Positions 16,601-42,800 of a DNA stretch of 64,000 bases are shown here, in pieces (positions within the stretch are counted from its first letter, which is position 1; the number at the start of each line of letters is the position of its first letter). The position numbers and the translations under genes were made by a program. The DNA lies in NCBI RefSeq assembly GCF_003952345.1, contig NZ_CP034433.1:186001-250000 (forward strand), written 5' to 3'. The DNA comes from Iodobacter ciconiae. GTDB taxonomy: Bacteria > Pseudomonadota > Gammaproteobacteria > Burkholderiales > Chitinibacteraceae. Under the pieces are notes generated by a model. It made no database searches. It worked only from the letters and a program-made list of their open reading frames with translations, and had not been told where the DNA came from.

Positions 16601-19333
16601 ATGTATCTAGGGAAATCAATAAAAAAGCGGGGTATCCGGGCTAGTTTGCTGGCCATTACACTGGTCAGCATTATGGTTGCATGTGTGACAATAGAGAGTG
16701 AAAGTCCGGCCAAGCCTGCTCCGCCACCTGCAGCCACTTTGCAGGGGCAGACAGAGCATGCTCCTGTTTTGGGGGAGCCGCCCAGGCACCCATTTGGCTT
16801 GCCACCCCGGGCCGGGGCAAAGGGGCCACCCGAAGGCCCTCAGGCGCATGCCATGGCAAGGGGGGATCTGGCCGCTCCTCTTTATGGCGTATGTGACCAG
16901 CGTTTATTTTCTTTATCAGGCGCAGCACTGGCCAGCTATGTGGCCACGGTAGAGGGCCGTTGTATTAACCGGCTTTTTGATGGCGACGCTGCAACTTACC
17001 CTGTGATTTCGGCTGCAAATATGCAGGCTGTGGCAGAAGAGGCGCGCTTACGTGCCCGTCAGTGGAGCCCGGATAAGCCCAATGGCCTTTGGCCCCTGGC
17101 TACGTTTTTAAAAGCAGGTTATTTCACTCAGTACAGCCATGCTAAAGAAGTGGGTGAATATGGCCCCCTTATTGACCAGCGGGTTATGCAGGTGGTGGGG
17201 GCACTGGCAGGTAATCCTGCACTCTGGCTGAATCCTGCCGCAGAAGATGCCCGATCTGATGAGGCCTGGTTGCGTCAGAATGACGCGAGGCAAAGCGTAA
17301 GCGAGACAATGATTTTGGCTGACTCGGTGCGTAAACCTGAATATGCATTGCCTTTATTAGGCTATTTTTTTGTCCGTTATCACCGGCAGTTCAAGCAAAG
17401 TTATGCCCAATACGCTTTGCATCCTATGCAAACCACTCTGTTTAATATGCATGGTCAGAATGGCTTTGAGCAGAAGGTGGAAGCAGGCCAGCTCGATGGC
17501 CTGGTAAAGTCATTGGCGGCGATTTTGCGCCAGGGCCGTCATGCTTTTGCAGATGAGCAGATGTTTTTAAACACACTGCGAGAAACTGGCCGCTTTATGC
17601 TTTACCCGCAAACCACGCCACTGGCCGAGCCTGCTGTGGCGCTGCATCTGAATGCCGAGCGCTATTCGGCAGCATGGGCCGAGGTGGTTTATGTGCTGAA
17701 AAAAATTGCTAAAGTGCCCTGTGATCGTTACAACATCTGTCATGCTGAGGCCGAGCTTAAAATCCGCTTATTTCCGAATCTATGGGCATTTGATAATGGC
17801 AATCTGGTATTTGAAACCCCGCTTAGCCGTCAAGAAGTAGAGCCGCTCTATTATGCGATGAAGCAGGTTGAGGCGCAGCTTAAGCGGGTTAGCGGTGTGA
17901 GTCAGCCGGTAAAGGATGATCCCAATGCCCGTTTGCGGATGGTGATTTATGGCACAAAAAGCGATTACGGCCGCTTTCAGGGTTTACTTAACGATTTATC
18001 TACCGATAACGGTGGCATTTATATTGAAAATGGCGCGACCTTTTATACCTTCGAGCGCACCAGCCAGGAAAGCACGCTGTCTTTAGAAGAGCTTGTCCGT
18101 CATGAATACGTGCATTATTTATCTGGTCGTTTTATTCAGCCGGGTATGTGGGGCTCCGGCGAGTTTTTCCGTAATAGCCGCCGTATGCCCTGGTATGACG
18201 AAGGCTTTGCCGAATTTATGGCATGGAGCACTTCGCGCGAGGGTATTAAAGTACGTGGCCATGTGGTGGAGGTGGTGGCCAGTAACTGGCCGGCCAGCTT
18301 TCAGACGCCTGCACAAATTATGCGCTCCAGCTATAGCGATGGCTGGGATTTTTATAGCCATTCTGCGCTGTGGTTTTATTTTTTACACCGTAATGAGCCG
18401 GGTATGCTGGCCGAGGTGTTACAGCAATTGCGTAATGATGATGTGAGAGGCTTCGATGCACTGGTTGAGCGCCTGGGGGCTGACATCGCCTTGGGTACAC
18501 GCTTTAAAAAATTTGTAGCCCAGCAAGTTGAATTGCAGCAGGCAGGCAAGCTGGGAGACACCTCTACCATTGAAGGTAAAGACTGGCTGGCGCAATCAGC
18601 GTGGCAGTTCAGTGATGTTGCACAAATTCAGGCCTTGATCGGCCGGGCGCTGCCGCTGGCTTGCCGTATCTGGGCCGAGGGCGAGGGCAGTACATTACGC
18701 CGTTTTGAATGCACAGGGCAGGAGTTTATTCGTGCGGGTACGATGACAGCAGCACATCAGGAAAGTGATGCTTTTCTTGATAATGCACTACAAAGCTTGC
18801 AAGGATTTGGCAATAATATGCTGGCTGTTAATTGCTTTGCCAGTGATTATCAGCTGAGTTTTCACAGTGCCGCGCTGCGCTGCGAAGGCCCGCTGGCAGA
18901 CGGCACCCGCTTTGTCCCGACACCTGTGGCAACCGCGCCACCGGCCCGGCCAGTGCAAATCCACCCGACAGTATTGCCTGCAGCCCCTTCAACCCGGCCA
19001 ATACCGTTACCAGCAACTGCGCCAATATCTGGGAGTTTAAATTCTCTGGTTTTGTTACAAACGCGGTTTAGCAGTGCAGGCCGTTGCCTGCGCGTTACGC
19101 TGGGGGCAAATCAGCCGGTAGATCGTTTTGTACTGCTGAATTCGGTCAGGCTGGGACGGATAAACTTTGCAGAATATGGCAGTTTTACCTACCGGCGTGA
19201 TGCAGATCTGGCCGAGCTTACAGACAGTATTACTGTTCGCCTTTATCAAGGGGCACAGTTCAAAGATATTTCGGTTGTGCTGGATGCAAAACCTGTTAAT
19301 CAAAGCGAGGCAGCTTGCTGGGCCAGGGTCTGA
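16601..19333 (+). CDS. Secreted M9-family collagenase, lipoprotein
   Basis: A 910-residue zinc metalloprotease. The N-terminus has a basic region, a hydrophobic core and a lipobox-like I-M-V-A-C (about residue 28), so it is probably lipid-anchored, followed by a Pro-rich linker. The central part resembles the peptidase M9 N-terminal (activator) and catalytic domains, with the zinc motif H501-E-Y-V-H505 and, 29 residues later, the third ligand E534 in W-Y-D-E-G-F-A-E-F. This fits the HExxH + E spacing of collagenases. A Pro/Thr-rich linker near residues 770-810 leads to a C-terminal domain of about 100 residues rich in beta strand. It stands alone and probably degrades collagen or gelatin for nutrients or invasion. 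Confidence 0.88.
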   Translation: MYLGKSIKKRGIRASLLAITLVSIMVACVTIESESPAKPAPPPAATLQGQTEHAPVLGEPPRHPFGLPPRAGAKGPPEGPQAHAMARGDLAAPLYGVCDQRLFSLSGAALASYVATVEGRCINRLFDGDAATYPVISAANMQAVAEEARLRARQWSPDKPNGLWPLATFLKAGYFTQYSHAKEVGEYGPLIDQRVMQVVGALAGNPALWLNPAAEDARSDEAWLRQNDARQSVSETMILADSVRKPEYALPLLGYFFVRYHRQFKQSYAQYALHPMQTTLFNMHGQNGFEQKVEAGQLDGLVKSLAAILRQGRHAFADEQMFLNTLRETGRFMLYPQTTPLAEPAVALHLNAERYSAAWAEVVYVLKKIAKVPCDRYNICHAEAELKIRLFPNLWAFDNGNLVFETPLSRQEVEPLYYAMKQVEAQLKRVSGVSQPVKDDPNARLRMVIYGTKSDYGRFQGLLNDLSTDNGGIYIENGATFYTFERTSQESTLSLEELVRHEYVHYLSGRFIQPGMWGSGEFFRNSRRMPWYDEGFAEFMAWSTSREGIKVRGHVVEVVASNWPASFQTPAQIMRSSYSDGWDFYSHSALWFYFLHRNEPGMLAEVLQQLRNDDVRGFDALVERLGADIALGTRFKKFVAQQVELQQAGKLGDTSTIEGKDWLAQSAWQFSDVAQIQALIGRALPLACRIWAEGEGSTLRRFECTGQEFIRAGTMTAAHQESDAFLDNALQSLQGFGNNMLAVNCFASDYQLSFHSAALRCEGPLADGTRFVPTPVATAPPARPVQIHPTVLPAAPSTRPIPLPATAPISGSLNSLVLLQTRFSSAGRCLRVTLGANQPVDRFVLLNSVRLGRINFAEYGSFTYRRDADLAELTDSITVRLYQGAQFKDISVVLDAKPVNQSEAACWARV

Positions 19334-19623
19334 TCATGTAATTTTTTTGTAGAAACAGAGTGCATAAATCTGCTTAATTGGCCTTATTTTTTTGGTTTTA
19401 TTACCATAAATAGCCTTGTGTACTCTAAAACTAGTAAGGTTGTTTTTTGGGGGGGGGAAGGGCTTGTTCTTGTTTTAACAACTTGTAATTAATGGTTTTT
19501 TTGTAATGATAGAGACGGCAATTGATCCCTGTTCAGCAGCTGAAAACATAGAATACGTCCGAAAACCCCTAGTTCTTTTCCAGCTTGACAGCTTACTGCT
19601 GCACAGCCGAAGATGCGCCCACT
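19334..19623. other. Intergenic region with a nine-G run before the Tyr leader
   Basis: No gene is supported here. A homopolymer of nine G lies at 19449-19457, and AT-rich, promoter-like DNA (TTGTTTTAACAACTTG, then TGTAATGAT) lies between it and the leader peptide. A 69-codon open frame from 19506 overlaps the leader in another frame and is not convincing. Confidence 0.4.
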
Positions 19624-26340: not shown

Positions 26341-29300
26341 TTATTTTGTAAGTATGATTTGATCTAAAATGCCATTGTATTCAAGAATAGATTGCTTTAG
26401 GTCTGCGTATATTTCCAGGCAATAAGTTATATCGTCAGAATGTGCCGCATCTTCAAGCAATTCACAAATAAATAGTGTCTCTTTATCCTGAATAATACGC
26501 GCTGCCCCTTTTAGTCTGTGAGCCAGCTCGCTAATCAAAGGGTGGTTTTGTATATCAATAGCATTTTTTAAATCTTCCAGGTCCTTAATATTGGTTGTTT
26601 GCATTATTTTTATAAATTGCTCCAACACTTCTTTATTATTAAAAGAAAACTGGGTAATTGTGTTTTCAATAGTATTGTACCGTGTATCATCAAATTGATT
26701 GTTTGCGTCTTGGGCTTGCACATTGGATAGAACTTCGGCAAGTTGATTTATATTTACAGGCTTGATTAAACAGTGATTCATGCCTGCTTCTTGTGCCCGG
26801 ATGGCTGTGCTTTCTCTTGCATCGGCGGTATAACCAATAATAAAAATTTCACTGCCTAGTTGTTCACGTACATGTTTTGAAAAAGTAAATCCATCCATTT
26901 CAGGCATAAAACAATCACTGATAATGGCATCAAAGTGGTGGGTTTTAACTAATTCCAACGCCTCACTAGCTGTACTAAGGCAATATACTTTGCTTAGGCC
27001 TAAAAAATAGAGCTGTTGTTCAAGTAGTAAACGGTTGGCGGGGTGATCATCAACTACCAGCAATTCAAGAGCAGGGTCTATTTTTGTCAGAGTGTTTTGT
27101 TTTTTATCGGTAGTCGTGTTTTCAATAATTTGGCTTGGTATTTGTAAAAGCACTGTCGTACCTGCATCGGGCTTACTCTGTAGCGATATTTCCCCACCCA
27201 TTTGCTTTATTAAGTTAGCACAAATCCATAATCCAAGTCCGGTTCCTGTTTTGCTGGAAAGATCATCTTGTGCATAGGCCTCAAATATTTTTGCCTGAGC
27301 CTCGTGGGAAATTCCGCTGCCGGTGTCTGTCACCTCAATAAGTAAAACAGACTGCTGGCTGACCTGCCAGTTTAGTTTAATGCTGATATAGCCGGTTTTT
27401 GTGAATTTAATAGAGTTTCCAATTAGATTGCCTATTACCTGAGCCAGACGTTTTTCATCCAGCAATACTAAATCAGGTAAACCAGGATCAATATGAATCA
27501 TTAGTTTCAGGCCATTTTCTTTAATAATCGGGCGATAAACTGCATCAATACCATCCAGTAGCCGGTATAGATTGCAAGGGTGGGGGGCGATACTGAGTTT
27601 ACCAGCTTCAATTTTTGCCTGATCTAAAATACCATCTAATAAATTTAATAAACTATTTGCGGATTGAAAAATAGCTGCCAGATTACGGTTATTTGCTTTT
27701 TTTAATTCTAGTTCAATCAAACCCAAAATCGCATTCATGGGGGTGCGAATCTCATGGCTGATAATAGCCAAAAATGTGGATTTAGCCCGATTAGCTGTTT
27801 CAGCCTCATTTTTGGTTTTAAGCAGCTCCCGCTCGCTTTCTTTTTGCTGAGAGATATCAAACCAGCCACCTAGTACCGCCTGCTGATCAAGGGTGGTTGA
27901 CAAAAAAGGTTTAGACCAAAGTATAAGATCATGTTTGTTTTTATCAATCTGGACGCGTATTTCTTCATAAACCGTATTTTTACTTTTTGAGGCAGTTTTC
28001 ATCAGCAGAGTTAAACGTGCATATAGCGTCGTTTTTTCAATTGCATTATTGATAAAATCATTATACGGCTGATTGGATACTTCGATTTTCTGGGAGGGTA
28101 AATTAATAAATAATGCAAAAGGCAGCTGGTCAATAAGGCGGGATAGCGTATTTAGCTGCTCCTTAAGCATTTGGCTGTATTTATGTGATTTATAGCTGCG
28201 AATAAATATATAAATTAGTAATATTATTGCTGCACTTATAAGTAGTAAAAATATTGCTCTGTAATTGGAGTAATGATATTGATTGAGGCCTGTATACACC
28301 GTTGCTGATTTATTATTAGCCCAGTTGGACCGAATATCATTTAATTCTTCTTGTGAAATACTTAATACGGCTTTGTTAATAATCTGAGCAAGTAGTGGTT
28401 TTTTTATATTGGTGGCAATAGAAATATTTAATGGCGTGGGGTTGGTTGCACCAATCACACGAAATTTTTCTATTTTTTTTGCAGAAATAATAGCATATGA
28501 AGAGCGTAAATTATTTATTATGGCGTCCACTTTTTCCTGTTCTAAAAGATTAAATGTAGAAAGTAAATTAGCAGCTTCGATAAATTCAATATTCTTACGA
28601 AGTACAGGGTCAAGAATGGTTTCTTTCGCTATGGAATTCTTAATAAAAGCGACTTTTTTCCCTGATAAATCATTCACCGAGCGTATATTTTTGTTATCAC
28701 TGCGAGTAATTATTCCCCAGAGGGATTGAATATATGGCGGGGAAAAAAACATTTCTTTTTTTCGTTCTTCAGACATTGCCATGATAGGAATAATGTCTGT
28801 TGTGTCTCCAGAAAAACTTAATGAATTGTGTATTCCGCTTTGGTTAACTTCAATAAATTTTAATCCAGTTAGCCGCTCAATTTTATCTAAAATATCAACT
28901 GCAATTCCTGTTGGTTTTGAGGTTGGGTTTGTTTTAAATAAAAATGGATAAAAATCTGAATAAGCTGAGTATTTTATATTTTTATTATTTTTAATCCATA
29001 TTTTTTCTTCCGGTGTAAGTGTTATTTTTTTTACTATATTGTAATGAACCGGGCCACCTTGCCAGCGTTGCTGAATTCCAATTTGACTGCTGATAGGTAT
29101 AAGATTGATTGCTTTATTTAAATCAGAGAGAAGGCGGGAGTTTTTTTTATTAATAAAAAAAACAAATGGATTGTCATTGATCGATGAGAAATTAGAAATT
29201 TCTAGGTTGTTAAGAGATATTTGATTGAGTAAAAAATTTGTTTCAATGGAATTACCAATATAAAGGTCAGCATGAATAAATGAAACAGATTGCAATGCCA

Positions 29301-29847
29301 AGAGGGAATTTTTAAATGAAATTATTTCTTTGTTTTTGTATTTTTTGTTAATTTCTTCTTTAAGAGTATCATTACTACCTAGTGTAATTATAGGTAGTTT
29401 TTTATCTGGTTCACCTTTTCTTTTTACCTCTACAAAATTATTTTGAAAATAATGGACAGTATTTTCTATACCTGAAATTTTGTTATCTAAATTACCTGCG
29501 ACTAAATCAATTTCTTTGTTTTTTAGAGCCAATAAGGCATTTTTTTTTGTATCAAAAACTTTTACTAAAAAACGCTTATTTATATAGCTACCTATAATGG
29601 ATAGATAGTCAGCTGTAATTCCTTGTATATTATTATTTGCATCTTTTATATAAAAAGGAATATATTCATCCAATACCATGCCTACTTTTAAAATGGTTTC
29701 AGATGTATTGTTATTTTCAGTGCTGTAAATAGTAAGTAATTGAGTTTCTGGCTTTGCAAGTGTTTGTGACTTTGCAATGCACTGGTTAAGGAAACTATAT
29801 AAAATAAATAGTGAAATTATTTTAATTAAAGTCATTTTCTTTAACAT
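26341..29847 (-). CDS. BvgS/EvgS-type hybrid sensor kinase
   Basis: About 1,168 residues in BvgS order: signal peptide/anchor, two periplasmic Venus-flytrap (SBP_bac_3) domains (about 50-265 and 280-510; E-Y-I-P-F-Y-I and F-Y-P-F-L-F starts), one transmembrane helix (about 525-545), a PAS-like region, HisKA with [10 protein letters not shown] (His near 697), HATPase (G-T-G-L-G-L-W), a receiver with D-D-H and S-D-C-F-M-P-E-M-D-G, and a C-terminal Hpt domain (A-H-R-L-K-G-A-A-R). It would pass phosphate to the adjacent BvgA-like regulator by a His-Asp-His-Asp relay. Its start overlaps the regulator stop; ATGs at 29847 and 29835 are both possible and the frame is open to 29862. The ligand is unknown. 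Confidence 0.9.
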   Translation of the reverse strand: MLKKMTLIKIISLFILYSFLNQCIAKSQTLAKPETQLLTIYSTENNNTSETILKVGMVLDEYIPFYIKDANNNIQGITADYLSIIGSYINKRFLVKVFDTKKNALLALKNKEIDLVAGNLDNKISGIENTVHYFQNNFVEVKRKGEPDKKLPIITLGSNDTLKEEINKKYKNKEIISFKNSLLALQSVSFIHADLYIGNSIETNFLLNQISLNNLEISNFSSINDNPFVFFINKKNSRLLSDLNKAINLIPISSQIGIQQRWQGGPVHYNIVKKITLTPEEKIWIKNNKNIKYSAYSDFYPFLFKTNPTSKPTGIAVDILDKIERLTGLKFIEVNQSGIHNSLSFSGDTTDIIPIMAMSEERKKEMFFSPPYIQSLWGIITRSDNKNIRSVNDLSGKKVAFIKNSIAKETILDPVLRKNIEFIEAANLLSTFNLLEQEKVDAIINNLRSSYAIISAKKIEKFRVIGATNPTPLNISIATNIKKPLLAQIINKAVLSISQEELNDIRSNWANNKSATVYTGLNQYHYSNYRAIFLLLISAAIILLIYIFIRSYKSHKYSQMLKEQLNTLSRLIDQLPFALFINLPSQKIEVSNQPYNDFINNAIEKTTLYARLTLLMKTASKSKNTVYEEIRVQIDKNKHDLILWSKPFLSTTLDQQAVLGGWFDISQQKESERELLKTKNEAETANRAKSTFLAIISHEIRTPMNAILGLIELELKKANNRNLAAIFQSANSLLNLLDGILDQAKIEAGKLSIAPHPCNLYRLLDGIDAVYRPIIKENGLKLMIHIDPGLPDLVLLDEKRLAQVIGNLIGNSIKFTKTGYISIKLNWQVSQQSVLLIEVTDTGSGISHEAQAKIFEAYAQDDLSSKTGTGLGLWICANLIKQMGGEISLQSKPDAGTTVLLQIPSQIIENTTTDKKQNTLTKIDPALELLVVDDHPANRLLLEQQLYFLGLSKVYCLSTASEALELVKTHHFDAIISDCFMPEMDGFTFSKHVREQLGSEIFIIGYTADARESTAIRAQEAGMNHCLIKPVNINQLAEVLSNVQAQDANNQFDDTRYNTIENTITQFSFNNKEVLEQFIKIMQTTNIKDLEDLKNAIDIQNHPLISELAHRLKGAARIIQDKETLFICELLEDAAHSDDITYCLEIYADLKQSILEYNGILDQIILTK

Positions 29848-30448
29848 GGCTTGCCAGTTCAATAATGGAGTTAATATTTAATTTTTGAAAAATACGGATC
29901 TTATAAGTACTTACTGTTTTATTGCTGATTGAGAGAGCCAGACCAATTTCTAAATTGGATTGCCCATCTGCAAGCAATCTGGCGATCATTAATTCACGGT
30001 TAGATAAGGATTTAAATACAGGTGTACTTTTTTCTTTTTTGCCATCAGCTAATCCTTGCATTATTGACTCAGGAAAAAAAGAATAACCTGAAAGTACCAT
30101 CTTCACTGCCTGAAAAATATCATTCATATTTTTTCCTTTCCCAATAAAACCATGAGCTCCTGATTTAAGTGCTCTAATTGCATAAATATTTTCATTTTTA
30201 GCAGATAGAAAAAGAACTTTTGTGCTTAATTCCGCAGCTCGGATGCGCTTCATAATCTCAAAGCCATCTAGCCTAGGTAATTCTAAGTCTAAAATCACTA
30301 AATCAACGTCATTTTTCCTCAGATATTCGAGTGCATCAATTCCATTGTCTGACTCTAAAACAACTTTAAATTCGCCTGATTTTTCTAAAGTTGAACGAAT
30401 GGCGATGCAAATTGCGGGATGATCATCAATAATTACTATAGATTTCAT
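29822..30448 (-). CDS. BvgA/EvgA-type response regulator (NarL/LuxR family)
   Basis: A 208-residue DNA-binding regulator. The receiver has D-D-H near the start and the phospho-acceptor Asp in V-I-L-D-L-E-L-P-R-L-D-G, followed by L-S-A-K. The C-terminal LuxR-type helix-turn-helix reads L-S-N-R-E-L-M-I-A-R-L-L-A-D-G, then N-K-T-V-S-T-Y-K. Length equals that of Bordetella BvgA (209). It is the first gene of a two-gene operon with the sensor kinase and faces a 1.7-kb non-coding region rich in candidate binding sites. It is the likely regulator of the pilus operon to the right and perhaps of the toxin to the left. Confidence 0.9.
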   Translation of the reverse strand: MKSIVIIDDHPAICIAIRSTLEKSGEFKVVLESDNGIDALEYLRKNDVDLVILDLELPRLDGFEIMKRIRAAELSTKVLFLSAKNENIYAIRALKSGAHGFIGKGKNMNDIFQAVKMVLSGYSFFPESIMQGLADGKKEKSTPVFKSLSNRELMIARLLADGQSNLEIGLALSISNKTVSTYKIRIFQKLNINSIIELASHVKENDFN

Positions 30449-32164: not shown

Positions 32165-33043
32165 ATGATTAAATATAATTTATTGGTGGCCGTGTTTTTT
32201 TTTACAGCATCATTATCTTTTTCTGGTGAAGTAGAAGATTTATATTCTTTGGCGGAAAAACAGGAATATCAAAAAATAATTGAATTAACTAGTCGTGAAG
32301 ATTATCAGCATAAAGATGTATTGCGCATTATGTTTATTAAGGGCGTTGCACTTTCTAAATTAAATAAAAGTGAACAGGCTATTGATCATTTTAAGTTAAT
32401 GGTTGAAAAATTTCCTAATCAGGCTGAGCCATACAACAATTTAGGTGTTCTATATGCAAAGCTGGGAAATTATGAACTGGCACGGGATGCGTTAGAAAAA
32501 TCAAACAAAATAAACCCGAAAATATTATCTGTTCATGAAAACCTGGCTAGCTTGTATTTAGATATGGCAAAAAAAGAGTATGGAAATGTAGTTAAATTGG
32601 GCGGAAATAGTGCAAAGCTTACCTGTATAAATAATGAAAATTTGAATGCAGATGTAAAAAGCAAGAAAAGTATGGCATTGGAAGATAAGCCTTTAGTTAA
32701 TGTGTCATCAGTTAATGCATCAATATTAAGTGATTTAGAAAAATGGCGAAAAGCTTGGTCTGATAAAAATATTGATGCGTATTTATCCGCATACAGTAAA
32801 AATATGAAAGTTGAAAATGGCCTGAGTTTGCTGGCTTGGAAAGAGCAGAGAAAACAAAGGCTGAGTTCAGCAGGGACAATTGCAGTAGAGGTAGATTCTC
32901 CAGTGATAAGCATCATTGATGAGAAACATGCCCGAGTTAGTTTTACACAAAAATATGTATCCAATCGTATGAAAGATACGGTAAGAAAAGTCCTTTCATT
33001 TGAATTGGATAATAATAGATGGCTAATTATTTCTGAAAAATAG
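32165..33043 (+). CDS. Periplasmic TPR protein with SnoaL/NTF2-like C-terminal domain
   Basis: A 292-residue protein with a signal peptide (F-F-F-T-A-S-L-S-F-S-G). Residues about 25-150 form at least two tetratricopeptide repeats (A-E-P-Y-N-N-L-G-V-L-Y-A-K-L-G-N-Y-E-L-A, then N-P-K-I-L-S-V-H-E-N-L-A-S-L-Y). A Lys/Ser-rich linker leads to an SnoaL/Cds6-type domain starting D-L-E-K-W-R-K-A-W-S-D-K-N and ending R-W-L-I-I-S-E. CAGGGTG lies before the ATG. It lies directly after the repeat array and before the pilin gene, so it is probably the first gene of the pilus region and may help assembly or signalling; that role is inferred from position. Confidence 0.75.
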   Translation: MIKYNLLVAVFFFTASLSFSGEVEDLYSLAEKQEYQKIIELTSREDYQHKDVLRIMFIKGVALSKLNKSEQAIDHFKLMVEKFPNQAEPYNNLGVLYAKLGNYELARDALEKSNKINPKILSVHENLASLYLDMAKKEYGNVVKLGGNSAKLTCINNENLNADVKSKKSMALEDKPLVNVSSVNASILSDLEKWRKAWSDKNIDAYLSAYSKNMKVENGLSLLAWKEQRKQRLSSAGTIAVEVDSPVISIIDEKHARVSFTQKYVSNRMKDTVRKVLSFELDNNRWLIISEK

Positions 33044-33160: not shown

Positions 33161-33748
33161 ATGCGTAACAAAATTATTTCTGCTTTTATCATGGCTTCGG
33201 CTTTTTCTGTATCACCTGTCGTATTTGCAGCACCTACTACAGTGACTAGCTCATATGAAGCAAGTGTGCTGGTGCGCGGTCAAAAAGATGGTTCAGATTA
33301 CAGTATTAGTGTCACACCTCGTGATTCACTTAACTATGCATATAATGCAGCTACTAAAGTTTTTGAAATTACCAATGCACAAGGTGTTATTCCATTGGAT
33401 ATTAAAGTTAAAGCGCCTGCTGGCTTTGATACTGATGCCAAGAAAGCATTTAAACTATTAGCAAAGTCAAAAGATGGTGCTATTACTAATGGTACAAGTA
33501 GTTTTACAGTACAGCCTGTTGTTGGTGGCTATAAAATTGATTCAACAGAAGTTGATTTGATGACTAAGGATATTGCTGGCCTTGAAAACTTTAATGGTAC
33601 AACTGGCAATTCTGTAGTTAAGATGGGTGCTGCAATTACTCGTGTATCAACTGGTGCAACGCTTACTAATATGTCTTCTTTAGCTGATGGTGTTTACCAA
33701 GGTAATATTCTGGTAGATCTTAAAGCCGAATGGACTTGGGGTGCTTAA
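33161..33748 (+). CDS. CS1/CFA-I-type major pilin
   Basis: A 195-residue secreted protein with a clear signal peptide ending V-F-A-A. The mature protein is all beta in pattern, starting T-T-V-T-S-S-Y-E-A-S-V and ending V-Y-Q-G-N-I-L-V-D-L-K-A-E-W, the alternating end expected for a donor-strand-exchanged subunit of the alternate chaperone-usher (class 5, alpha) fimbriae. Size fits CfaB-like subunits (about 170 residues mature). AAAGGG precedes the ATG. A strong terminator follows, so pilin transcripts should exceed those of the downstream genes. Confidence 0.82.
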   Translation: MRNKIISAFIMASAFSVSPVVFAAPTTVTSSYEASVLVRGQKDGSDYSISVTPRDSLNYAYNAATKVFEITNAQGVIPLDIKVKAPAGFDTDAKKAFKLLAKSKDGAITNGTSSFTVQPVVGGYKIDSTEVDLMTKDIAGLENFNGTTGNSVVKMGAAITRVSTGATLTNMSSLADGVYQGNILVDLKAEWTWGA

Positions 33749-33800: not shown

Positions 33801-34484
33801 ATGAAAAAACTAATATGTATTTTTATTTTATTCGTATTTTCTAAAAACGTGTTTGCTATCTCTTTAGATAGCTTCTACTCGTATTTGCCTTCAGATAAAA
33901 ATACTATTTCAATTGATGTAAAAAATCCAGATGCAAGTGCTGCACATCTGTTTAAAATTGAGGTTTATCCTATCGAATCTCCATATAAAATGGATAAAAT
34001 TGCCGATGGTAATTCAAATGCAGCTGATCTTTTATTTACACCAGAAAAAGCAATTGTTCCTGCAGATGGGTCTGTTAAAATCAAGTTTGTTTATAACGGT
34101 CCTAAAGATGATAAAGAAAGATACTATGCAATTAAATGGACAGATGTACGTATAGATCGTGCTAATAAGGCTGTTACTGAAAAAGCAGCAAGTGCAGTTC
34201 AGCGTGTAACATTGGCAACAACTTTAATTATATTGCCGCGAGAAGAAAAATTTGATTATGCACTTAATAAGAGCATGATTAAAAATACCGGAAATAGTAT
34301 GTTCAAGTTTTTCTTTGATGGAAAGTGTAATAAAAAAGGAAAAATTGTTCCTTGCTCCGATGCTGGGCCATTATTGCCCGGAAGGTCATATTCTTTTGAG
34401 AAGTTTGATTTTGTTCAGTTTCCTATGGTTGGTATTTGGCGTGGGAATAAGGTGATTAATGCCGATCGTAATGATGAAAAATAG
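33801..34484 (+). CDS. CS1-type periplasmic pilus chaperone (CfaA-like)
   Basis: A 227-residue protein with a signal peptide (I-F-I-L-F-V-F, cleavage near F-A-I). It shows the immunoglobulin-like chaperone pattern: S-I-D-V-K-N-P, F-T-P-E-K-A-I-V-P-A-D-G-S-V-K-I-K-F-V-Y, R-Y-Y-A-I-K-W, and a C-terminal domain with N-T-G-N-S-M-F-K-F-F-F-D-G-K-C. This fits alternate chaperone-usher chaperones more than PapD types. AGAGGA precedes the ATG. It should cap pilin subunits in the periplasm and hand them to the usher. Confidence 0.82.
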   Translation: MKKLICIFILFVFSKNVFAISLDSFYSYLPSDKNTISIDVKNPDASAAHLFKIEVYPIESPYKMDKIADGNSNAADLLFTPEKAIVPADGSVKIKFVYNGPKDDKERYYAIKWTDVRIDRANKAVTEKAASAVQRVTLATTLIILPREEKFDYALNKSMIKNTGNSMFKFFFDGKCNKKGKIVPCSDAGPLLPGRSYSFEKFDFVQFPMVGIWRGNKVINADRNDEK

Positions 34485-34692
34485 AATGAGTACCATATTT
34501 TCGTCAACGGCTGTCATTGTTTTTGATATTTATTTATAACGTTATATTAATGTTCGAGAAGAATTTTTGTTTAATATGATTTTTCTCAACTATATTCTGA
34601 TAGCTTGTTTGACTGAAGTTGTGGGGAAACTCACGATGTTAATCAAGAGGATAATTAAGAATTAAGTTATATAATATTATTAGGTGCTTAAA

Positions 34693-37338
34693 GTGAGTCT
34701 ATCTCAATATATATTTTGCCTTATGGTTTTACCTGCACTGTTTGCTCATGCGGAGGCACATCTTGAATTGCTGGATGATATTGATGAAGAAGCTGACTCT
34801 GGCCTTAATACTGAATTGCACTCGGGTTTGTCTGAGGTTGCTAATCAAGAGAATATAAATTTAGTGATTATTGAAGCGATTAGTTCTAATGGGGGGATTG
34901 AGGATAGCCTTGATAAAGCTGCAATAATTCCTGTTCCTCCTCCTGCATTAAACCAGCTTTCAATTCCACAGGAAATGCGTGATCTTTTAAGTGATGGTAT
35001 TTCACTGGATTTATACCTGAAAAATATTGATGATGAAAATGAAGAGTTATTATCTTTTGCATCTCTTATTCTTATTTATGAAGATCAGCATTTTTTAATA
35101 AAAAATATTTCATTAAAAGCAGACCGTCAGGTTCGTTTGTCTGCGGAATCTCTTGCCCAATTAATGAGCGCAGTAGGGCAATCACTAGATCAAACAGGCG
35201 GGTTTGATTTTGGCTCTGGCATGCGCATGCAGATTGATATAGAAACGATGAAAGCGTATTTGCAGGTTTCACAACAAAATTTTGCTGTAAAATCAGTTTC
35301 TCGTATTACTTACCTTGGTGATTCCTCAGCTAAGGGGCTTGGTAATATTTTTAATTATGGTTTAAATGCTTATGCAAGTAATAATAATGGGATGAGTAGT
35401 AATTCTGCGTATTTAAATTTTAATAATGTTACTTCATTAGGGACTCAGCATTTATTTATTTCTGGCGATTTAAACAGCAATAGCCAGAGTGATGGAAAAG
35501 TTTTTAATCTTAATGAGTTAGTTTATGAGCGTGATTTTGCAGGAAGAAGATTGGCATTAGGCATGCTGAATGGGTGGTCTTTACAATCACTGGGCAATAT
35601 TTCTACTTTATCAAGTGAAAGAATGTATGGTTTTTCATATGGTAATGTTGCTAAATCGGCTAAATATGATCAGTCACAGTCGTTAACACCTATTACGGTC
35701 TACCTGCCTTCTTCAGGCGAAGTGCGTATTACACGTGATGGCAAATTATTAAGCACACAGCGTTTTCCGTTGGGAAGCCATGAGCTGGATGCTTCTCGTT
35801 TGCCAGGCGGGATTTATGATGTTGAGGTTGAGGTTGTGGTGGGTGGGAAGGTTGTTTCTAGCCGCCGTCAGCAAATTAACAAACCTTATACTCCTAATGC
35901 AACTGGAAATGAGCTTGCCTGGCAGGTGTGGGGTGGAGCAGGTAAAAAAAATAATAGTTATGATTATATAAATAATGTCGAGCGGGATGGCAGTTTTGAG
36001 CCTCTTTATGGTTTTTCATTAGCATCACAATGGGAAATGCTTAGTTGGAGTACATCCTTATATCGTAATCAAAATACTTCAGTATTTGAGGCAAGCCCAT
36101 CGGTTCAAATTAATGAGGACATACGTATTAATTTGCAGTCTTTGTATGGAAGTGATGGATTATTAAGGAATATGGCAAATTTGAACCTTAATATTCCGGG
36201 GGGCTGGGGTAATACTTGGATAGGTATCGAGCGAGGACATGAGGGAAGAAATTTACCCATGTATATCGCTAATCGCAACACAATGGGTGCATCGTTAGCT
36301 CTTGCTAATTTACATCCATCATTGGGTTCAGTTTCGTTTAGTTTTGAAAATGATTTGGATCAGAAACAAAAATACGTTCGCGCTGATTATAGCCATAATT
36401 TTGATCTTAAATATGCTACTGCTTATTTTCAAGTGGGCGTTAATCATTATATGAATAATGACGGTGGTTATCGTGAGCGTGATACCCAATATTTTGCAAA
36501 TGTTAATTTTTCATTTCCCATGGATTCAGACTTTAGAATTGGTGCATCCACTCAAGGCAGAGATAGCACACTGGACTTAAGTGCTGCAACAACGTTGGAT
36601 GGGGTGATTAATCGTGTGGGGGCGGATGTTAGCCGCAGTTTTGGCAATAGTGCAGTAAGCAATTATGGTGCTTATGCCAATTATAGCGGTCGATATGCAG
36701 AGGGGTCAGTCTCATTTGCCGGTAGCCAGGATGCGCGAAGTGTATCTCTAACCAATAATGGTGGTTTTGTTATTGGTGATGGCGGGATTGTTGCCGGTAA
36801 GGGTGAGGCAGGTGCTGGTTCGGCTGCTGTTGTTGTGAATATGCCTGAAATTGGCGCGACTGATTTGGAGGCCAATATTAATGGCCAGCGGTATCCGCTT
36901 TCTTCAGGAAAAAATTTAATTACTCTTCCAGCCTATGATGGTTATTCGATTCAGGTAAGTAGCACGGATGATGCAGAAAGTTCCTACCAAATTCAGGGGG
37001 AATTGATGAATTACAATCTATATCCAGGAAATATTGTAGAAATTAATCCTAGTGTTAAACAAATGATTACTGTATTTGGGCGTCTGACTACAGAAGATGG
37101 TAAGCCATTGAGTAATGCAAGTGTGAGAAACCATATCGGTGAAACAATGACGAATGAAACCGGTAATTTTTCTATTGATGTTGATCTTAAACATCCAGAG
37201 GTGAAAATAGAATCAAAGGAAACAGGTTCATTTGATGTAAAAATTAAATTGGGTGCAGATAAATCTGTTGTTTGGCTAGGGGATGTTGTTTGGCGTGGTC
37301 AGGGTGTTACTGATTATAGTGTTGCACCACCACTTTAA
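34693..37338 (+). CDS. CS1-type outer-membrane usher (CfaC-like)
   Basis: An 881-residue outer-membrane assembly platform. After a signal peptide (A-L-F-A-H-A) comes an N-terminal periplasmic domain, then a beta-barrel rich in aromatic and Asn/Ser strands (Y-G-F-S-Y-G-N, then T-P-I-T-V-Y-L-P-S-S-G-E-V-R-I-T-R-D-G), with R-L-P-G-G-I-Y-D-V-E-V-E-V as the plug-like region, and a C-terminal domain including L-T-T-E-D-G-K-P-L-S-N-A-S-V. Length matches CfaC-type ushers. The GTG at 34693 is preferred because AGGTG lies six bases upstream; a GTG at 34684 would add three residues. The 208 bases before it hold no gene. Confidence 0.85.
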   Translation: MSLSQYIFCLMVLPALFAHAEAHLELLDDIDEEADSGLNTELHSGLSEVANQENINLVIIEAISSNGGIEDSLDKAAIIPVPPPALNQLSIPQEMRDLLSDGISLDLYLKNIDDENEELLSFASLILIYEDQHFLIKNISLKADRQVRLSAESLAQLMSAVGQSLDQTGGFDFGSGMRMQIDIETMKAYLQVSQQNFAVKSVSRITYLGDSSAKGLGNIFNYGLNAYASNNNGMSSNSAYLNFNNVTSLGTQHLFISGDLNSNSQSDGKVFNLNELVYERDFAGRRLALGMLNGWSLQSLGNISTLSSERMYGFSYGNVAKSAKYDQSQSLTPITVYLPSSGEVRITRDGKLLSTQRFPLGSHELDASRLPGGIYDVEVEVVVGGKVVSSRRQQINKPYTPNATGNELAWQVWGGAGKKNNSYDYINNVERDGSFEPLYGFSLASQWEMLSWSTSLYRNQNTSVFEASPSVQINEDIRINLQSLYGSDGLLRNMANLNLNIPGGWGNTWIGIERGHEGRNLPMYIANRNTMGASLALANLHPSLGSVSFSFENDLDQKQKYVRADYSHNFDLKYATAYFQVGVNHYMNNDGGYRERDTQYFANVNFSFPMDSDFRIGASTQGRDSTLDLSAATTLDGVINRVGADVSRSFGNSAVSNYGAYANYSGRYAEGSVSFAGSQDARSVSLTNNGGFVIGDGGIVAGKGEAGAGSAAVVVNMPEIGATDLEANINGQRYPLSSGKNLITLPAYDGYSIQVSSTDDAESSYQIQGELMNYNLYPGNIVEINPSVKQMITVFGRLTTEDGKPLSNASVRNHIGETMTNETGNFSIDVDLKHPEVKIESKETGSFDVKIKLGADKSVVWLGDVVWRGQGVTDYSVAPPL

Positions 37339-37383
37339 TATTGATATGCAGCATATATTAAATTTTGTATTTAGGTGGATTTA

Positions 37384-40300
37384 ATGAATAAGAAGAATAT
37401 TAGCTTTTATTTAATATATGTTGCCAGTCTCATTGTAGGCGCGCTTTATATGCCTGCTGCCCTGGGTGAGGTATTAACTCAAACACGTCCTGCTTTGCCT
37501 GGCTTAAGCCCGTCGCCCAGTCACCCTGGTTTGGGGGTAACTAAACCAAGCACCGGACTTATGCTAATCAGGCAGGTAGTGCGCATAGAGCAAGGTGTGT
37601 TGCTAATCGAAGATCAGGTAGCTAATACACAATATGTTACAACACTGGATAGTAGCGGGAGCATGGAGCTTGGCTCTACTGCTCCCGCAATTTTTGGTGC
37701 GCGTATTCCACGGCAGGGGGCAAAAAAACCGGCGATCTGGTACACGCATAAAACAGATATTCAAGTTAAACAAATTTACCTTTTGAAGCCGCGTAAGGTG
37801 TTTCAGGGAATGGCGGATGAATATGGTAATGCTGTTGCATTAAATGGTGATCGCTTTGAAGTTCGGAATGGCCGTCAGTTAAATCCTGTTTTGAGCGATG
37901 CTGCGTTTGACGGGCTCGCGAAAATGTCATCCGGTTCCTCTCAGCAGATTTCGCTGATTGAAGTACTGGCTGATGGTCGTGAGCGTGAGCGAATTAATAC
38001 TGTTTATAAACGTGGTCAGTTAATTCTGGGGGCTCCGCCGGTGCAATCATGCCGTAATGAAACGGTCGATGGCGTGGCAGGCAAGTTATGTGTACTGAGA
38101 ACGATTCAAGGCTCGCACCAGGCTGCCGGGGGGGGGACATTAAGTTTACAATCCGGGCGCGTATTCCTGCACCTAATGCGCGATTCAGGGTTGGAGGCAG
38201 TTGGCACCGTATTGGCGAGAGCGTTGCTTTGGCTGAATTTGCTAACAGTAAACAAATTGAAGTCTTTTTTGTACCACCTGTGCAGGTTGAGGGGGCGATT
38301 AGACCGGCATTAAACTTGGATCGCGTTGTGGAAGCAGGCTTTTATTCTTCATCCCGTTTATCCCGTGGCGATCGTTTTAATCTTAAAATTAGTAATCGAT
38401 CAGTGTCCGACGGGGTTCATAGTGTGATGTCCCGACTTGGCTTATTGCTAATTGATGATCAGCCATCGGGTCGCCAATATGTGACCACTCTGTCGGGTAC
38501 TGCCAGTCAGGCTATTTATGGCGAGCGCAGGGCTCAGGGAGGGACCCGCTCTGCTATCTGGTATACCGAAAACAGCCGAGATAGATCATTATTTCCATTA
38601 CTTAATATTATTAATTTGCAACCTCCTCAGTATTTTTCAGGGGTAGCTAATGAGCAGGGCCAGCTTTCACCTGGCCGAATGGCTGCATTACCTGGCTATA
38701 TTAACCCTGCATTTAATGAACAGGCTTTTTCTGATTTTATAGGCATGCCGGTAGGGAAACAGCATTTATTAAGTTTTGATGGGCAGCGTAGTGGTGGTGA
38801 TCAATCAAGGTATCAGTTAAATCTTTCTAAGGCTGCTCAGCTAACGCTGGCACCGGATGGTACATGCCGTGCTGAACAGGTGGATGGGGTTGCGGGGCAG
38901 GTGTGTATTTTGCGTAAAGTGGGTGGCGAGAGTAAGGCCAGTACGGGGGGCGACGTGCGTTTTCGTGTTAGCAGTACTTCTTTGCACTCTACGTTGCAGG
39001 CACGATTTCGGGTGAGTACTGTCTGGCATAAACTGGGTGAATCAGTGGGTGTGGCTGAATTTGGGCAATCAAAGGCAATTGAGCTATTTCTACCTGATGT
39101 TGTGAGTCAGAGTAATGAAAAAAAATCATCAGCGTTAACCTCAGCGAATGGTGAGTTCTATACGCCTGCACGTAATGATGATCGTTTTGTTATTGGAATG
39201 GGTATTAAAATTTCAATTAATTTACCTAAATTGGTAAATCAACCCAGAGGTGGGCGGCTTGATTATAAGCCACACTTAAGTGGATACAATGGAGGCGGGA
39301 AATACATTGCCCCTGCCGTTTTAAATTTACAATCGCTTGCTGTAGGACAAACATTTAAGTTACATGCCTACCCTGAAACAGAGTGGTGGTCTGGGTTTTC
39401 TAGGCCAGGTCAGGGGTCTATATGGGCTCCTGCAGGCTCGCCATTTACATGTGGCTCATCGAAGCCGCTTGGTGTTAATTCGGATGGGACGATTCCATCT
39501 GGCAATAAAGATTTTGTGTTTGCATTTTACTCTAAGGAAAGATTCATTCCATGTAATGGAGCAACTCCCTTCTATACACCCGCTCGGGATCAACAGACTG
39601 CAACTTGGTATTTTGGTGCTGGCTGGTTTCAGATATATATTCATCGTGTTGCTAATTCTGGTGACCAAACTGCTTTCAGATATCCCACTATTATTCCGAG
39701 GGTTGATCCCACTGATGCAGGCGTTTTTGACTTTGTCGGCCCTAGCGAGAATCAACCTTCACTAAACCCCGGTTTTTACCCTGATCGAGATCAGGGCTAC
39801 CCGTTTCCGCCAACTGCTGCTGTGGTGGCTAGTTTAAGTGCTACCCCTAACCCTGTGGTCGAAGGAAGCACTACAAAAGTAACAGTAACGCTTAATAAAG
39901 CGGCGCTGGCTAACCAGCAAGTGTATGTGAAGTTTGCTGGTGTGAGCGCAGATATTTCTGACTTAAGCAGTAAAGGGATGTTGAACTTACAAAATGCAAC
40001 ATCAGCTGTGGCAGATCTTGGGGCCGGGGGGAGTGTTCTGGTCAAGGAAGGCGTCACACAATTCACTTTTGATATAAGTACTGCCAACGATGCAGACAAT
40101 GTGGTGCAGAGTTTTGAAGTGCGGGCCAAGGCGGGCACCGCAGATGATGCTGCCGCGCCGAAGGTAGCGGTTAACATTGACCCGATATCGAGTCCGGCCG
40201 TGGTGGCCAGTTTAAGTGCTACTCCTAATCCTGTAACCGAGGGAAGTACTACAAAAGTGACGGTGACGCTTGATAAAGCGGCACTGGCTAACCAGCAGGT

Positions 40301-41879
40301 GTATGTGAAGTTTGCTGGTGTGAGCGCAGATATCTCTGATTTAAGCAGTAAAGGGATGTTGAACTTACAAAATGCAACATCAGCTGTGGCAGATCTTGGG
40401 GCCGGGGGAGCTGTTTCGCTCAATACAGGAGCTACGCAGTTCACTTTTGATATAAGTACTGCAGATGATGCAGATAATGTAATGCAGAGTTTTGAAATTC
40501 GGGCCAAGGCGGGCACCGCAGATGATGCAGCTGCGCCGAAGGTAAGCGTGGATATTAATCCGAAAGTAATGGTCAAGAGCATTTCTGCGACATCGCCGGT
40601 ATTGGCTGGTGAGCCAACACTGGTGACTGTTGAGCTGGAAAGCCCGACGACCACGGCAACTGGGCAGGTGTACCTGAAGTTTGTGGCTCAGAGCGCAGAT
40701 AAGGATGACATTGTTTCCGTAGTAAATATGAATTCGGGAAGTGGTGCATCCGGGGTGAATGATCTGAGCGTGGGCGGGCCAGTAATGGTAAATGGTAATA
40801 CAAGGATATTTACATTCCAGGTTCCTACTGTGGCTGATGCCGACGGGCAACCCCAAACCTTCGTGTTATTTGCAAATGGAGGAGCCGTTGAGAGTAGTTC
40901 AACGGGTAAGAGCACACAGGTCACAATTACGCCCAAGGCTGAATCACTGAGGGTAGAAAGTGTGGTTGCCAGCCCGAAAACGGTAGTGGCGGGTGGGAAA
41001 GTAACCTTTACCGTAACACTTAATAAGATGGTTCCCGTGACTCGTGCCAATCAGGCGGTGTATGTGAAGTTTGCTGGTGCGGGCTCATCTCCGGCAGGGA
41101 TTAATGATCTGTTTTCTCCAGGGATGATTAATCTGCAGGGTGCAGCGGGGCCTGTGACTGACTTGAGCACGGGTGGGGCTGTCGCCGTTCGGACAGGAGG
41201 CAGGTCATTTACTTTTGAGGTGCAAACTAAAGCGGATGAGGAGATCTTTGATGAGCAGTTTGAAATGCGCGCCAATATTGGCACTCAAGAGGATTTGTTG
41301 TCTCAGGTTAAAGATACGGTAACGATTGAGCCTGCGCCTCTTCCTGCGCCAAGTATTGAGTTTTCGTATGTGGCAATCGAGCAGGAAGGGAAGTTTAAAA
41401 ACGGGGCTTTGCCTATTGAGATGAACTATGGTGTGAAAATAAAAAATGTTGAGACCACTTCCAAGTTTAAAAATATGCAAGCATCTAAAGTTGGAGCGTA
41501 TCTGAAACAGCGCACACTGCGTGCTTTTGTTGCGGGCATAAAGCTTGAAAATATGGGAACTGCCAATGTGGCGGGGACGCAATATTGTACGTTTACCAAA
41601 GATGGTGGCGGAAAGTTAATTCCATTGCCAATAAGTATGGTTTACGAAGGATTAGCAACGCCTCTTGATTGTAATAGCATTACAGGTATTAGTTTGGGAT
41701 ACCCTGGCGTATCAGGTGGGTGGAGCGCTCAGGATACAACAACATATATTACTAAAATGCAGATGAAATTTACGATGGGAGATGTTGTGTCGCAACAAAC
41801 CAGCACAGGTGGTTATTGGTATGGTATTGCAAGAAGCACTGGTAAGCTGGTTCTGTCTCTGAATGTTGTGCAGCGTTGA
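37384..41879 (+). CDS. Giant pilus-associated adhesin, phase-variable, frame broken at poly-G
   Basis: Two overlapping frames make one secreted protein of about 1,498 residues once one G is added to the nine-G run at 38128-38136. Evidence for one gene: the end of the first frame (V-D-G-V-A-G-K-L-C-V-L-R) continues across the run into D-I-K-F-T-I-R-A-R, exactly mirroring an in-frame second module (V-D-G-V-A-G-Q-V-C-I-L-R, then T-G-G-D-V-R-F-R-V). Layout: signal peptide; two tandem modules of about 270 residues with A-I-W-Y-T; a Cys-containing middle domain; four Ig-like repeats; a C-terminal domain of about 170 residues. The ATG at 37384 follows AGGTGG. It lies between usher and second chaperone, as a tip adhesin would. 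As sequenced it ends early, after about 309 codons. Confidence 0.8.
38128..38136 (+). repeat. Poly-G tract (nine G) in the adhesin gene
   Basis: Nine G follow GCTGCC. With nine the frame runs into a stop at 38313; with seven or ten it continues to 41879. Runs of this length are classic slippage sites. Confidence 0.85.
39822..41336 (+). repeat. Four tandem Ig-like repeats in the adhesin
   Basis: Repeat units of about 126 codons start near 39822, 40200, 40567 and 40948, each with a V-x-S-x-S-A-T-P-N-P-like start, Q-V-Y-V-K-F, an I-N/S-D-L block, T-F-D/E-I/V and a D-x-x-x-Q-S/T-F-E-V/M-R-A end. Units 1 and 2 are nearly identical in DNA, including more than 100 bases with few differences, so they arose recently. 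Units 3 and 4 are diverged. Confidence 0.85.
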
Positions 41880-42170: not shown

Positions 42171-42800
42171 ATGCTTATTTTACGTGTGCTGGCTTTGTCC
42201 TTAGTGATTGTCCCTATGTTTTCCTTTGGTTTTTCTGTGCCTATGTTTATTGAATTAAGTGATAAATCAAAGACGACTGAATTTACTATTATGAATGAGG
42301 ATGCTGTTTCTCATGATTATATAATACGTATTGATGAAACGACTTTTCCTCGGGATGGGCGAAAAATTTTAAAGATCAAAAGCGAGGCTCTTGTTCCTGA
42401 TATTACCATCGTAAGGCTGCCTGCAAAATCCCAGAGAAAAATAAAAATAAACAAAAAGAGTGGCGTTACCCAGGCGGAGCGATATTTTGAAATGGTGGTT
42501 ACAGAAAAAAATATTATAAATAAAAGTATTGATGGGTATGATAAAGAAGTGAGATCACTTTTGCTGCTCAGGCCTTCTGTTTCGGTTATGAAATATGTAA
42601 TAAATAAAAATAAGTTATTAAATAGCGGGAACGGGTCTTTATTGTTTATGGAAGATTTAAATTGTGGTGATAAAGAGGGGAAAACAATATTAGTTGCTCC
42701 CGGTATGGAGATCGAGATGCCTGTTGTTGCAGAGGGGAGTATTTTTAGTGTTGGCCAGCAGGATGAGTTAAAGGAAATATCAAATCATTGCAGCAAGTAA
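42171..42800 (+). CDS. Second CS1-type periplasmic pilus chaperone
   Basis: A 209-residue protein with a signal peptide (V-L-A-L-S-L-V-I-V-P-M-F-S-F-G). The chaperone pattern includes F-T-I-M-N-E-D, I-V-R-L-P-A-K-S-Q-R-K-I-K-I, R-Y-F-E-M-V-V, L-L-L-L-R-P and N-S-G-N-G-S-L-L-F-M-E-D-L-N-C. The ATG at 42171 has AAGGGG upstream and starts the signal peptide; a longer frame to 42090 lacks both. A second chaperone beside the adhesin gene suggests a dedicated partner for that unusual subunit. Confidence 0.75.
   Translation: MLILRVLALSLVIVPMFSFGFSVPMFIELSDKSKTTEFTIMNEDAVSHDYIIRIDETTFPRDGRKILKIKSEALVPDITIVRLPAKSQRKIKINKKSGVTQAERYFEMVVTEKNIINKSIDGYDKEVRSLLLLRPSVSVMKYVINKNKLLNSGNGSLLFMEDLNCGDKEGKTILVAPGMEIEMPVVAEGSIFSVGQQDELKEISNHCSK

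What the first reader, a model, noticed from the sequence alone, without database searches (positions are those of the whole stretch)
37384..41879. Phase-variable giant adhesin switched by a nine-G run
The reading frame is lost exactly at GGGGGGGGG (38128-38136); seven or ten G restore a protein of about 1,498 residues whose restored sequence matches the homologous second module in the same gene. A slippage-prone run in a surface adhesin gene is the classic form of a contingency locus. This genome would be in the OFF state.
Basis: partly seen in the sequence, partly recalled or inferred. Interest (0 to 1): 0.82.

Follow-up and report, generated by a model that had tools for sequence, protein, structure and literature searches.

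The report
Pilus tip gene broken at G-run
In this freshwater bacterium the gene for the sticky tip of a hair-like pilus is interrupted at a run of nine G bases that could slip on and off, but whether cells really switch it has not been shown.

Summary
Nine G lie at 38128-38136, the reading frame changes there, and both sides encode one protein. The gene is not a lone giant adhesin: it is the tip-subunit gene (EcpD position) of an operon ordered like that of the E. coli common pilus. The part lost contains the C-terminal pilin domain, so this copy should make no usable tip; an EPEC strain without EcpD has no such pilus.

In 5 of 5 relatives with DNA the frame is unbroken and no G-run stands at the site (one relative is cut by contig ends). 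Long G-runs here (22 of 9 or more) and in the genus are mostly not in surface genes. Two 9-G runs in one window are not beyond chance (12 of 100 shuffles). For a real change: six of six other long runs that protein domains span or bracket keep the frame, and coding constraint is equal on both sides.

Best reading: a real, recent length change in a slip-prone tract, an OFF allele that could revert. An evolved contingency locus is unproven; one-way loss and assembly error remain open. In passing: the adhesin's middle looks like an exchanged, hypervariable cassette between conserved ends.

The parts
32165..33043 (+). TPR protein with Cds6-type C-terminal domain, first gene of the cluster; also present in the same-genus genome G004
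   Evidence: Pfam Cds6_C 9.5e-18 and TPR; 60% identical gene in G004
33161..33748 (+). major pilin, EcpA-like
   Evidence: NCBIfam FimblnEcpA 6.4e-7 and Pfam MatB 5.4e-4, both below curated cut-offs; 77% identical gene in G004
33801..34484 (+). periplasmic chaperone, EcpB-like
   Evidence: Pfam EcpB_C over cut-off; 30% identity to EcpB, 8e-28
34684..37338 (+). outer-membrane usher, EcpC/TcfC/CooC-like
   Evidence: Pfam TcfC and CooC_C over cut-off; 33% identity to EcpC over 793 columns, 1e-124
37384..38313 (+). first open part of the tip adhesin gene (ATG at 37384; GTG at 37375 possible): signal-peptide-like start by eye and most of N-terminal module 1
   Evidence: listed as a separate 309-aa protein, P0018
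38128..38136 (+). run of nine G where the frame changes
38088..41879 (+). second open part of the tip adhesin gene, another frame: end of module 1, module 2, stalk, pilin domain
   Evidence: listed as a separate 1216-aa protein, P0001
37573..38279 (+). N-terminal module 1 (approximate), split by the run
   Evidence: alignment A2; profile match to EcpD residues 153-331, E 3e-4
38412..39096 (+). N-terminal module 2 (approximate), homologous to module 1
39819..40496 (+). stalk: two copies of a 300-nt repeat, 88% identical, 378 nt apart; shares a weaker 42-nt repeat of four copies
41352..41876 (+). C-terminal pilin-type domain, out of frame with the start
   Evidence: profile match of the homologues' C-termini to EcpD, E 1.5e-9; model of the P0002 domain like chaperone-usher pilins
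42171..42800 (+). second periplasmic chaperone, EcpE/EcpB-like (ORF open from 42090; likely ATG 42171)
   Evidence: matches EcpB 2e-4 and EcpE 4e-4, no Pfam match; same place in G004 and three other loci

Best explanation
This is the tip-adhesin gene of an E. coli-common-pilus-like (alpha type) chaperone-usher pilus. A change in the length of a G tract inside its first N-terminal module has shifted the frame, so the copy in this genome makes a truncated protein without the C-terminal pilin domain that the usher pathway needs. By analogy with EcpD the pilus as a whole should be absent or tip-less (inferred). The tract is long enough to slip at replication, so the state is probably reversible at some rate in a population (inferred, not shown). 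It looks recent and peculiar to this species, not an old conserved contingency locus.
For: Run and frame change. One-frame gene in the same-genus genome G004 and in the 9 long homologues aligned. Operon order matches ecpA-B-C-D-E. C-termini of the homologues match EcpD (1.5e-9) and the model of one folds like pilins. Constraint is alike before and after the run: dN/dS 0.088 and 0.089 (usher 0.121), so the protein was in use until recently (synonymous sites near saturation). No other stop in 1263 codons. Of the other tracts of 9 or more G, those that Pfam domains of one protein span or bracket keep the frame, 6 of 6, and none of 30 eight-G loci (30 of 48 fetched) was flagged as broken. A delta-ecpD EPEC strain is described as ECP-negative (PMC9499635, passages seen).
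Against: No reads and no second strain: variation in length is not shown. No G-run at the site in 5 of 5 relatives with DNA. Long G-runs are not clearly concentrated in surface genes. No other truncated allele found. Foldseek gave no match at E <= 0.001 for the C-terminal model.
Confidence: 0.5

Rival explanations
1. One-way loss: a plain frameshift in a dispensable adhesin gene (wild or laboratory), at a place where indels are frequent, with no functional switching.
For: Run not present in relatives. Adhesin found in 2 of 43 family genomes, both of this genus; usher in 3 of 43, the third only 29% identical: dispensable in the group. Fimbrial pseudogenes by frameshift are reported as numerous in host-restricted Salmonella (PMC3373541, passage seen).
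Against: No further decay seen in the gene or operon; the break falls exactly in the longest G-run of the gene.
Confidence: 0.22
2. Assembly or sequencing error at a homopolymer; the real gene is intact.
For: A single assembly; homopolymers are a common place for indel errors in long-read data (recalled; the sequencing method is not known here). Gene otherwise open and constrained.
Against: Of the other G tracts of 9 or more in this genome, 6 of 6 that protein domains span or bracket are in frame; 0 of 30 eight-G loci examined were flagged as broken. The numbers are small and do not exclude one error.
Confidence: 0.2
3. The full protein is still made from this copy by transcriptional slippage or ribosomal frameshifting at the run.
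For: Overlapping frames and a homopolymer at the shift; constraint on both sides.
Against: The relatives have the protein in one frame without a run; recoding at G runs is less usual than at A or T runs (recalled). No signal for recoding was tested here.
Confidence: 0.05
4. The two parts are two separate genes, the second with its own start.
For: The protein database lists 309-aa and 1216-aa proteins.
Against: The second part starts inside a module, without a signal sequence by eye, and the 9 long homologues aligned are each one protein.
Confidence: 0.02

Closest known systems
EcpD, tip adhesin of the E. coli common pilus (ECP/Mat; alpha-type chaperone-usher pili)
   Same: Same place in an operon of the same order; C-terminal pilin domain homologous (E 1.5e-9), N-terminal module 1 more weakly (3e-4), module 2 hardly (0.039).
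   Different: 547 aa against 1353-1751 aa in the nine homologues aligned; N-terminal module repeated and a long repeat-bearing stalk added; G-run and frame break in this genome.
Large uncharacterised homologues in Iodobacter fluviatilis, Chromobacterium, Xenophilus and Plesiomonas (among P0002-P0017, most with precomputed PF27328; loci L113-L116)
   Same: Same architecture; same operon order in G004, L113, L114 and L115 (L116 is cut by its contig ends).
   Different: One open frame; no G-run at the site.
Neisseria pilC (pilus-associated; G tract of 9-20 within the gene; PMC5953494, passages seen)
   Same: Pilus-associated surface protein with a poly-G tract inside the coding region; Iodobacter is placed in Neisseriales, as is Neisseria (recalled).
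   Different: Different pilus system (type IV) and, as far as I know, an unrelated protein; phase variation there is established, here it is not.
CfaE / CsuE type tip adhesins
   Different: No meaningful sequence match in the PDB search; N-terminal module 1 found no clear fold match.

Membership tests
E. coli common pilus-like (alpha) chaperone-usher operon | gene order pilin, chaperone, usher, tip adhesin, second chaperone | tested here: met
   same order in G004, L113, L114, L115
E. coli common pilus-like (alpha) chaperone-usher operon | usher of the TcfC/CooC/EcpC type | tested here: met
   Pfam TcfC, CooC_C over cut-off; EcpC 1e-124; NCBIfam TcfC equivalog far below its cut-off
E. coli common pilus-like (alpha) chaperone-usher operon | EcpA/MatB-type pilin | tested here: inconclusive
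   matches below curated cut-offs; weak BLAST match 0.003
EcpD-type tip adhesin | C-terminal pilin domain homologous to EcpD | tested here: met
   hhalign E 1.5e-9; pilin-like model
EcpD-type tip adhesin | receptor-binding at the pilus tip | not testable with these tools
   needs binding assay
simple-sequence contingency (phase-variation) locus | slip-prone tract at or over accepted length | tested here: met
   nine G; cut-off of 9 in PMC5953494
simple-sequence contingency (phase-variation) locus | tract length sets ON or OFF by frame | tested here: met
   frames before and after the run differ; relatives in one frame. By sequence only, no expression data
simple-sequence contingency (phase-variation) locus | tract length varies between cells or strains | not testable with these tools
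   one assembly, no reads, no second strain seen
simple-sequence contingency (phase-variation) locus | tract kept or recurrent in orthologues (supporting, not defining) | tested here: not met
   0 of 5 relatives with DNA
simple-sequence contingency (phase-variation) locus | long tracts concentrated in surface genes of the genome (supporting, not defining) | tested here: not met
   Of 22 tracts of 9 or more G, 11 are spanned by an ORF of 150 aa or more; besides the finding, the scanned ones include FlgT (flagellar), a beta-helix protein and a solute-binding protein, the rest cytoplasmic or inner-membrane types or unknown. Of 30 tracts of 11 or more in 8 of 9 genus genomes, 7 are spanned by such an ORF

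The most novel reading that the evidence does not exclude
An environmental Neisseriales genus varies one pilus tip in two ways: ON/OFF by slippage at a newly arisen G tract that gates the whole pilus, and in antigen or binding target by exchange of a hypervariable middle cassette between near-identical ends.
Probability: 0.25. Interest if true: 0.55.

Novelty: new member of a known kind. Interest (0 to 1): 0.38.

Why it matters
If switching is shown, it would be a case of slip-strand ON/OFF control acting on the tip subunit of a chaperone-usher pilus, in a water bacterium outside the well-studied pathogens, and a tract caught soon after it arose (absent in the relatives seen), which would let one ask how contingency loci begin. 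If not, it is a useful warning that a G-run in an adhesin gene is not by itself a contingency locus.

Tried and rejected
Rejected: two separate genes. Not borne out: enrichment of G tracts in surface genes. My automatic test flagged four break-like loci among the 22 tracts of 9 or more G (L010, L012, L020, L021); L010 is the finding, and I read the other three as boundaries between two different genes (L012 as cheY-like and cheA-like from the translations, labels recalled; L021's downstream ORF had no Pfam match). Of the 30 longer genus tracts two were flagged: L052, the same place as L021, and L072, where the flagged frames lie on either side of the run on what I read as a gene boundary.

Full report
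WHAT IS THERE. The window is a piece of a single-contig 3.88-Mb genome of, most likely, a member of Iodobacter: the same-genus genome G004 carries protein P0002, named Iodobacter fluviatilis in the sources. Nine G stand at 38128-38136. The frame open from 37375 or 37384 ends at 38313; another frame on the same strand runs from 38088 to 41879. The protein database lists them as two proteins of 309 and 1216 aa (P0018, P0001).

ONE GENE, BROKEN. The first part matches residues 4-262 and the second residues 256 onward of the 1379-aa G004 protein. In the 9 long homologues put into the alignment (P0002-P0005, P0008, P0009, P0011, P0014, P0015; of the 17 proteins I left out the genome's own P0001, P0006 and P0007, which are like P0008, and six shorter or partial ones) one frame runs through the site. 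In G004 the ORF is 1382 aa. The 1263 downstream codons hold no stop. Nei-Gojobori estimates against G004 are alike before and after the run: dN/dS 0.088 for 248 codons before, 0.089 for 327 after, then 0.154 in the middle and 0.208 in the C part; usher 0.121; synonymous sites are near saturation. So the protein was kept by selection on both sides after the two species split, and the break is recent or reversible. The downstream part has no signal sequence of its own by eye.

WHAT THE BREAK SHOULD DO. The pilin domain, by which a subunit is held by the chaperone and joined to the next subunit (established for chaperone-usher pili; recalled), lies after the break. The 309-aa product should therefore not be built in. 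In EPEC a delta-ecpD mutant is described as ECP-negative, without EcpA fibre and tip (PMC9499635, passages seen). So this copy probably means no pilus, or a pilus without its tip: inference.

IS THE RUN SPECIAL? In the window, two 9-G runs are found where 0.51 are expected; 12 of 100 shuffles reach two. In the genome there are 22 separate tracts of 9 or more G (counted from the 32 overlapping matches). Eleven of the 22, the finding included, are spanned by an ORF of at least 150 aa. I scanned the other ten proteins: in 5 a Pfam domain spans the tract in frame (LuxC, Mob_synth_C, a histidine kinase ATPase domain, beta-helix, thymidylate kinase), in 1 the tract lies between two domains of one protein (FlgT), in 2 after the last domain (LNT, ApeP-like), in 1 before the first (a solute-binding protein), in 1 there is no domain (positions by my arithmetic). 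So with domains spanning or bracketing the tract the frame is kept in 6 of 6, and the adhesin is the only clear break. Of 48 tracts of exactly eight G I had loci for 30: 26 are spanned by an ORF of at least 150 aa and none was flagged as broken. This argues against careless homopolymer calling, but with so few cases an error at one run cannot be excluded.

NOT AN OLD CONTINGENCY LOCUS. At the homologous site the relatives read mixed Gly or Ala-Gly codons without a G-run: G004 and L113, L114, L115, L116. Four of these five have a full-length open frame; L116 is open throughout its 3.6-kb contig and cut at both ends. The longest G or C run in the adhesin frames of the five is 7. The run arises over a Gly-Gly-Asp stretch common to most homologues, which is G-rich by its nature; module 2 of the same gene has six G at the like place. 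In the 9 genus genomes, 30 tracts of 11 or more G were found in 8; 7 of 30 are spanned by some ORF of at least 150 aa, not all likely genes, and by reading the surroundings most of the rest are between genes or at gene ends. A search with the upstream part, which looks only at proteins of about 170-540 aa, found this genome's own protein and one partial relative from a 1.8-kb contig, so no second truncated allele.

A SECOND LAYER OF VARIATION. P0002 (I. fluviatilis) and P0003 and P0004 (no organism shown) are nearly identical over alignment columns 1-300 (254 and 255 of 258 residues to P0002) and 300-680 (346 and 342 of 348), that is over both N-terminal modules, and at the C-terminus (167 and 169 of 175), but hardly alike in columns 681-1480 (51 of 204 and 45 of 172 aligned residues, with many gaps). 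The window's middle resembles P0002 (144 of 208) and not P0004 (41 of 181), while the next segment resembles P0004 more (195 of 250 against 131 of 246). That looks like a mosaic: the inserted domain or stalk exchanged as a cassette; no test for recombination was run. The window's stalk also has a 300-nt repeat, two copies 88% identical, which could vary by recombination.

VERDICT. I hold a real, recent, probably reversible tract-length change most likely (0.5), with one-way loss (0.22) and assembly error (0.2) open.

Noticed in passing
window about 39200-40900 and proteins P0002, P0003, P0004: The middle of the adhesin looks like a hypervariable cassette between near-identical ends, and the window's allele looks mosaic between two of these.
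   Followed up: partly
G000 whole chromosome: All 22 tracts of 9 or more G follow one strand per chromosome half (12 on + at 0.06-1.67 and 3.50-3.77 Mb, 10 on - at 1.86-3.32 Mb); the 48 eight-G tracts do so with some exceptions and a mixed zone near 1.5-1.7 Mb. GC skew, about +0.1 in the window, may account for part; the dnaA match lies at 2.77 Mb, not at a switch.
   Followed up: partly
L012 (G000:C1:747967-747976): Ten G stand one base before the start codon of a cheA-like gene (label from reading the translation), where the ribosome binding site should be; a change in length could alter translation.
   Followed up: no
window 19449-19457: A second nine-G run lies between two large ORFs (910 aa ending at 19333 and 471 aa from 19712).
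   Followed up: no
window 26341-30448 (-): Large EvgS-like hybrid sensor kinase and a FimZ/EvgA-like response regulator (below curated cut-offs) stand divergent to the pilus operon and may control it.
   Followed up: no
L113 10807-13104: Xenophilus sp. AP218F has a second, shorter ORF with adhesin-module homology next to the second chaperone.
   Followed up: no
window 39819-40496: Two 300-nt stalk repeats, 88% identical, 378 nt apart: a likely place for recombination.
   Followed up: no
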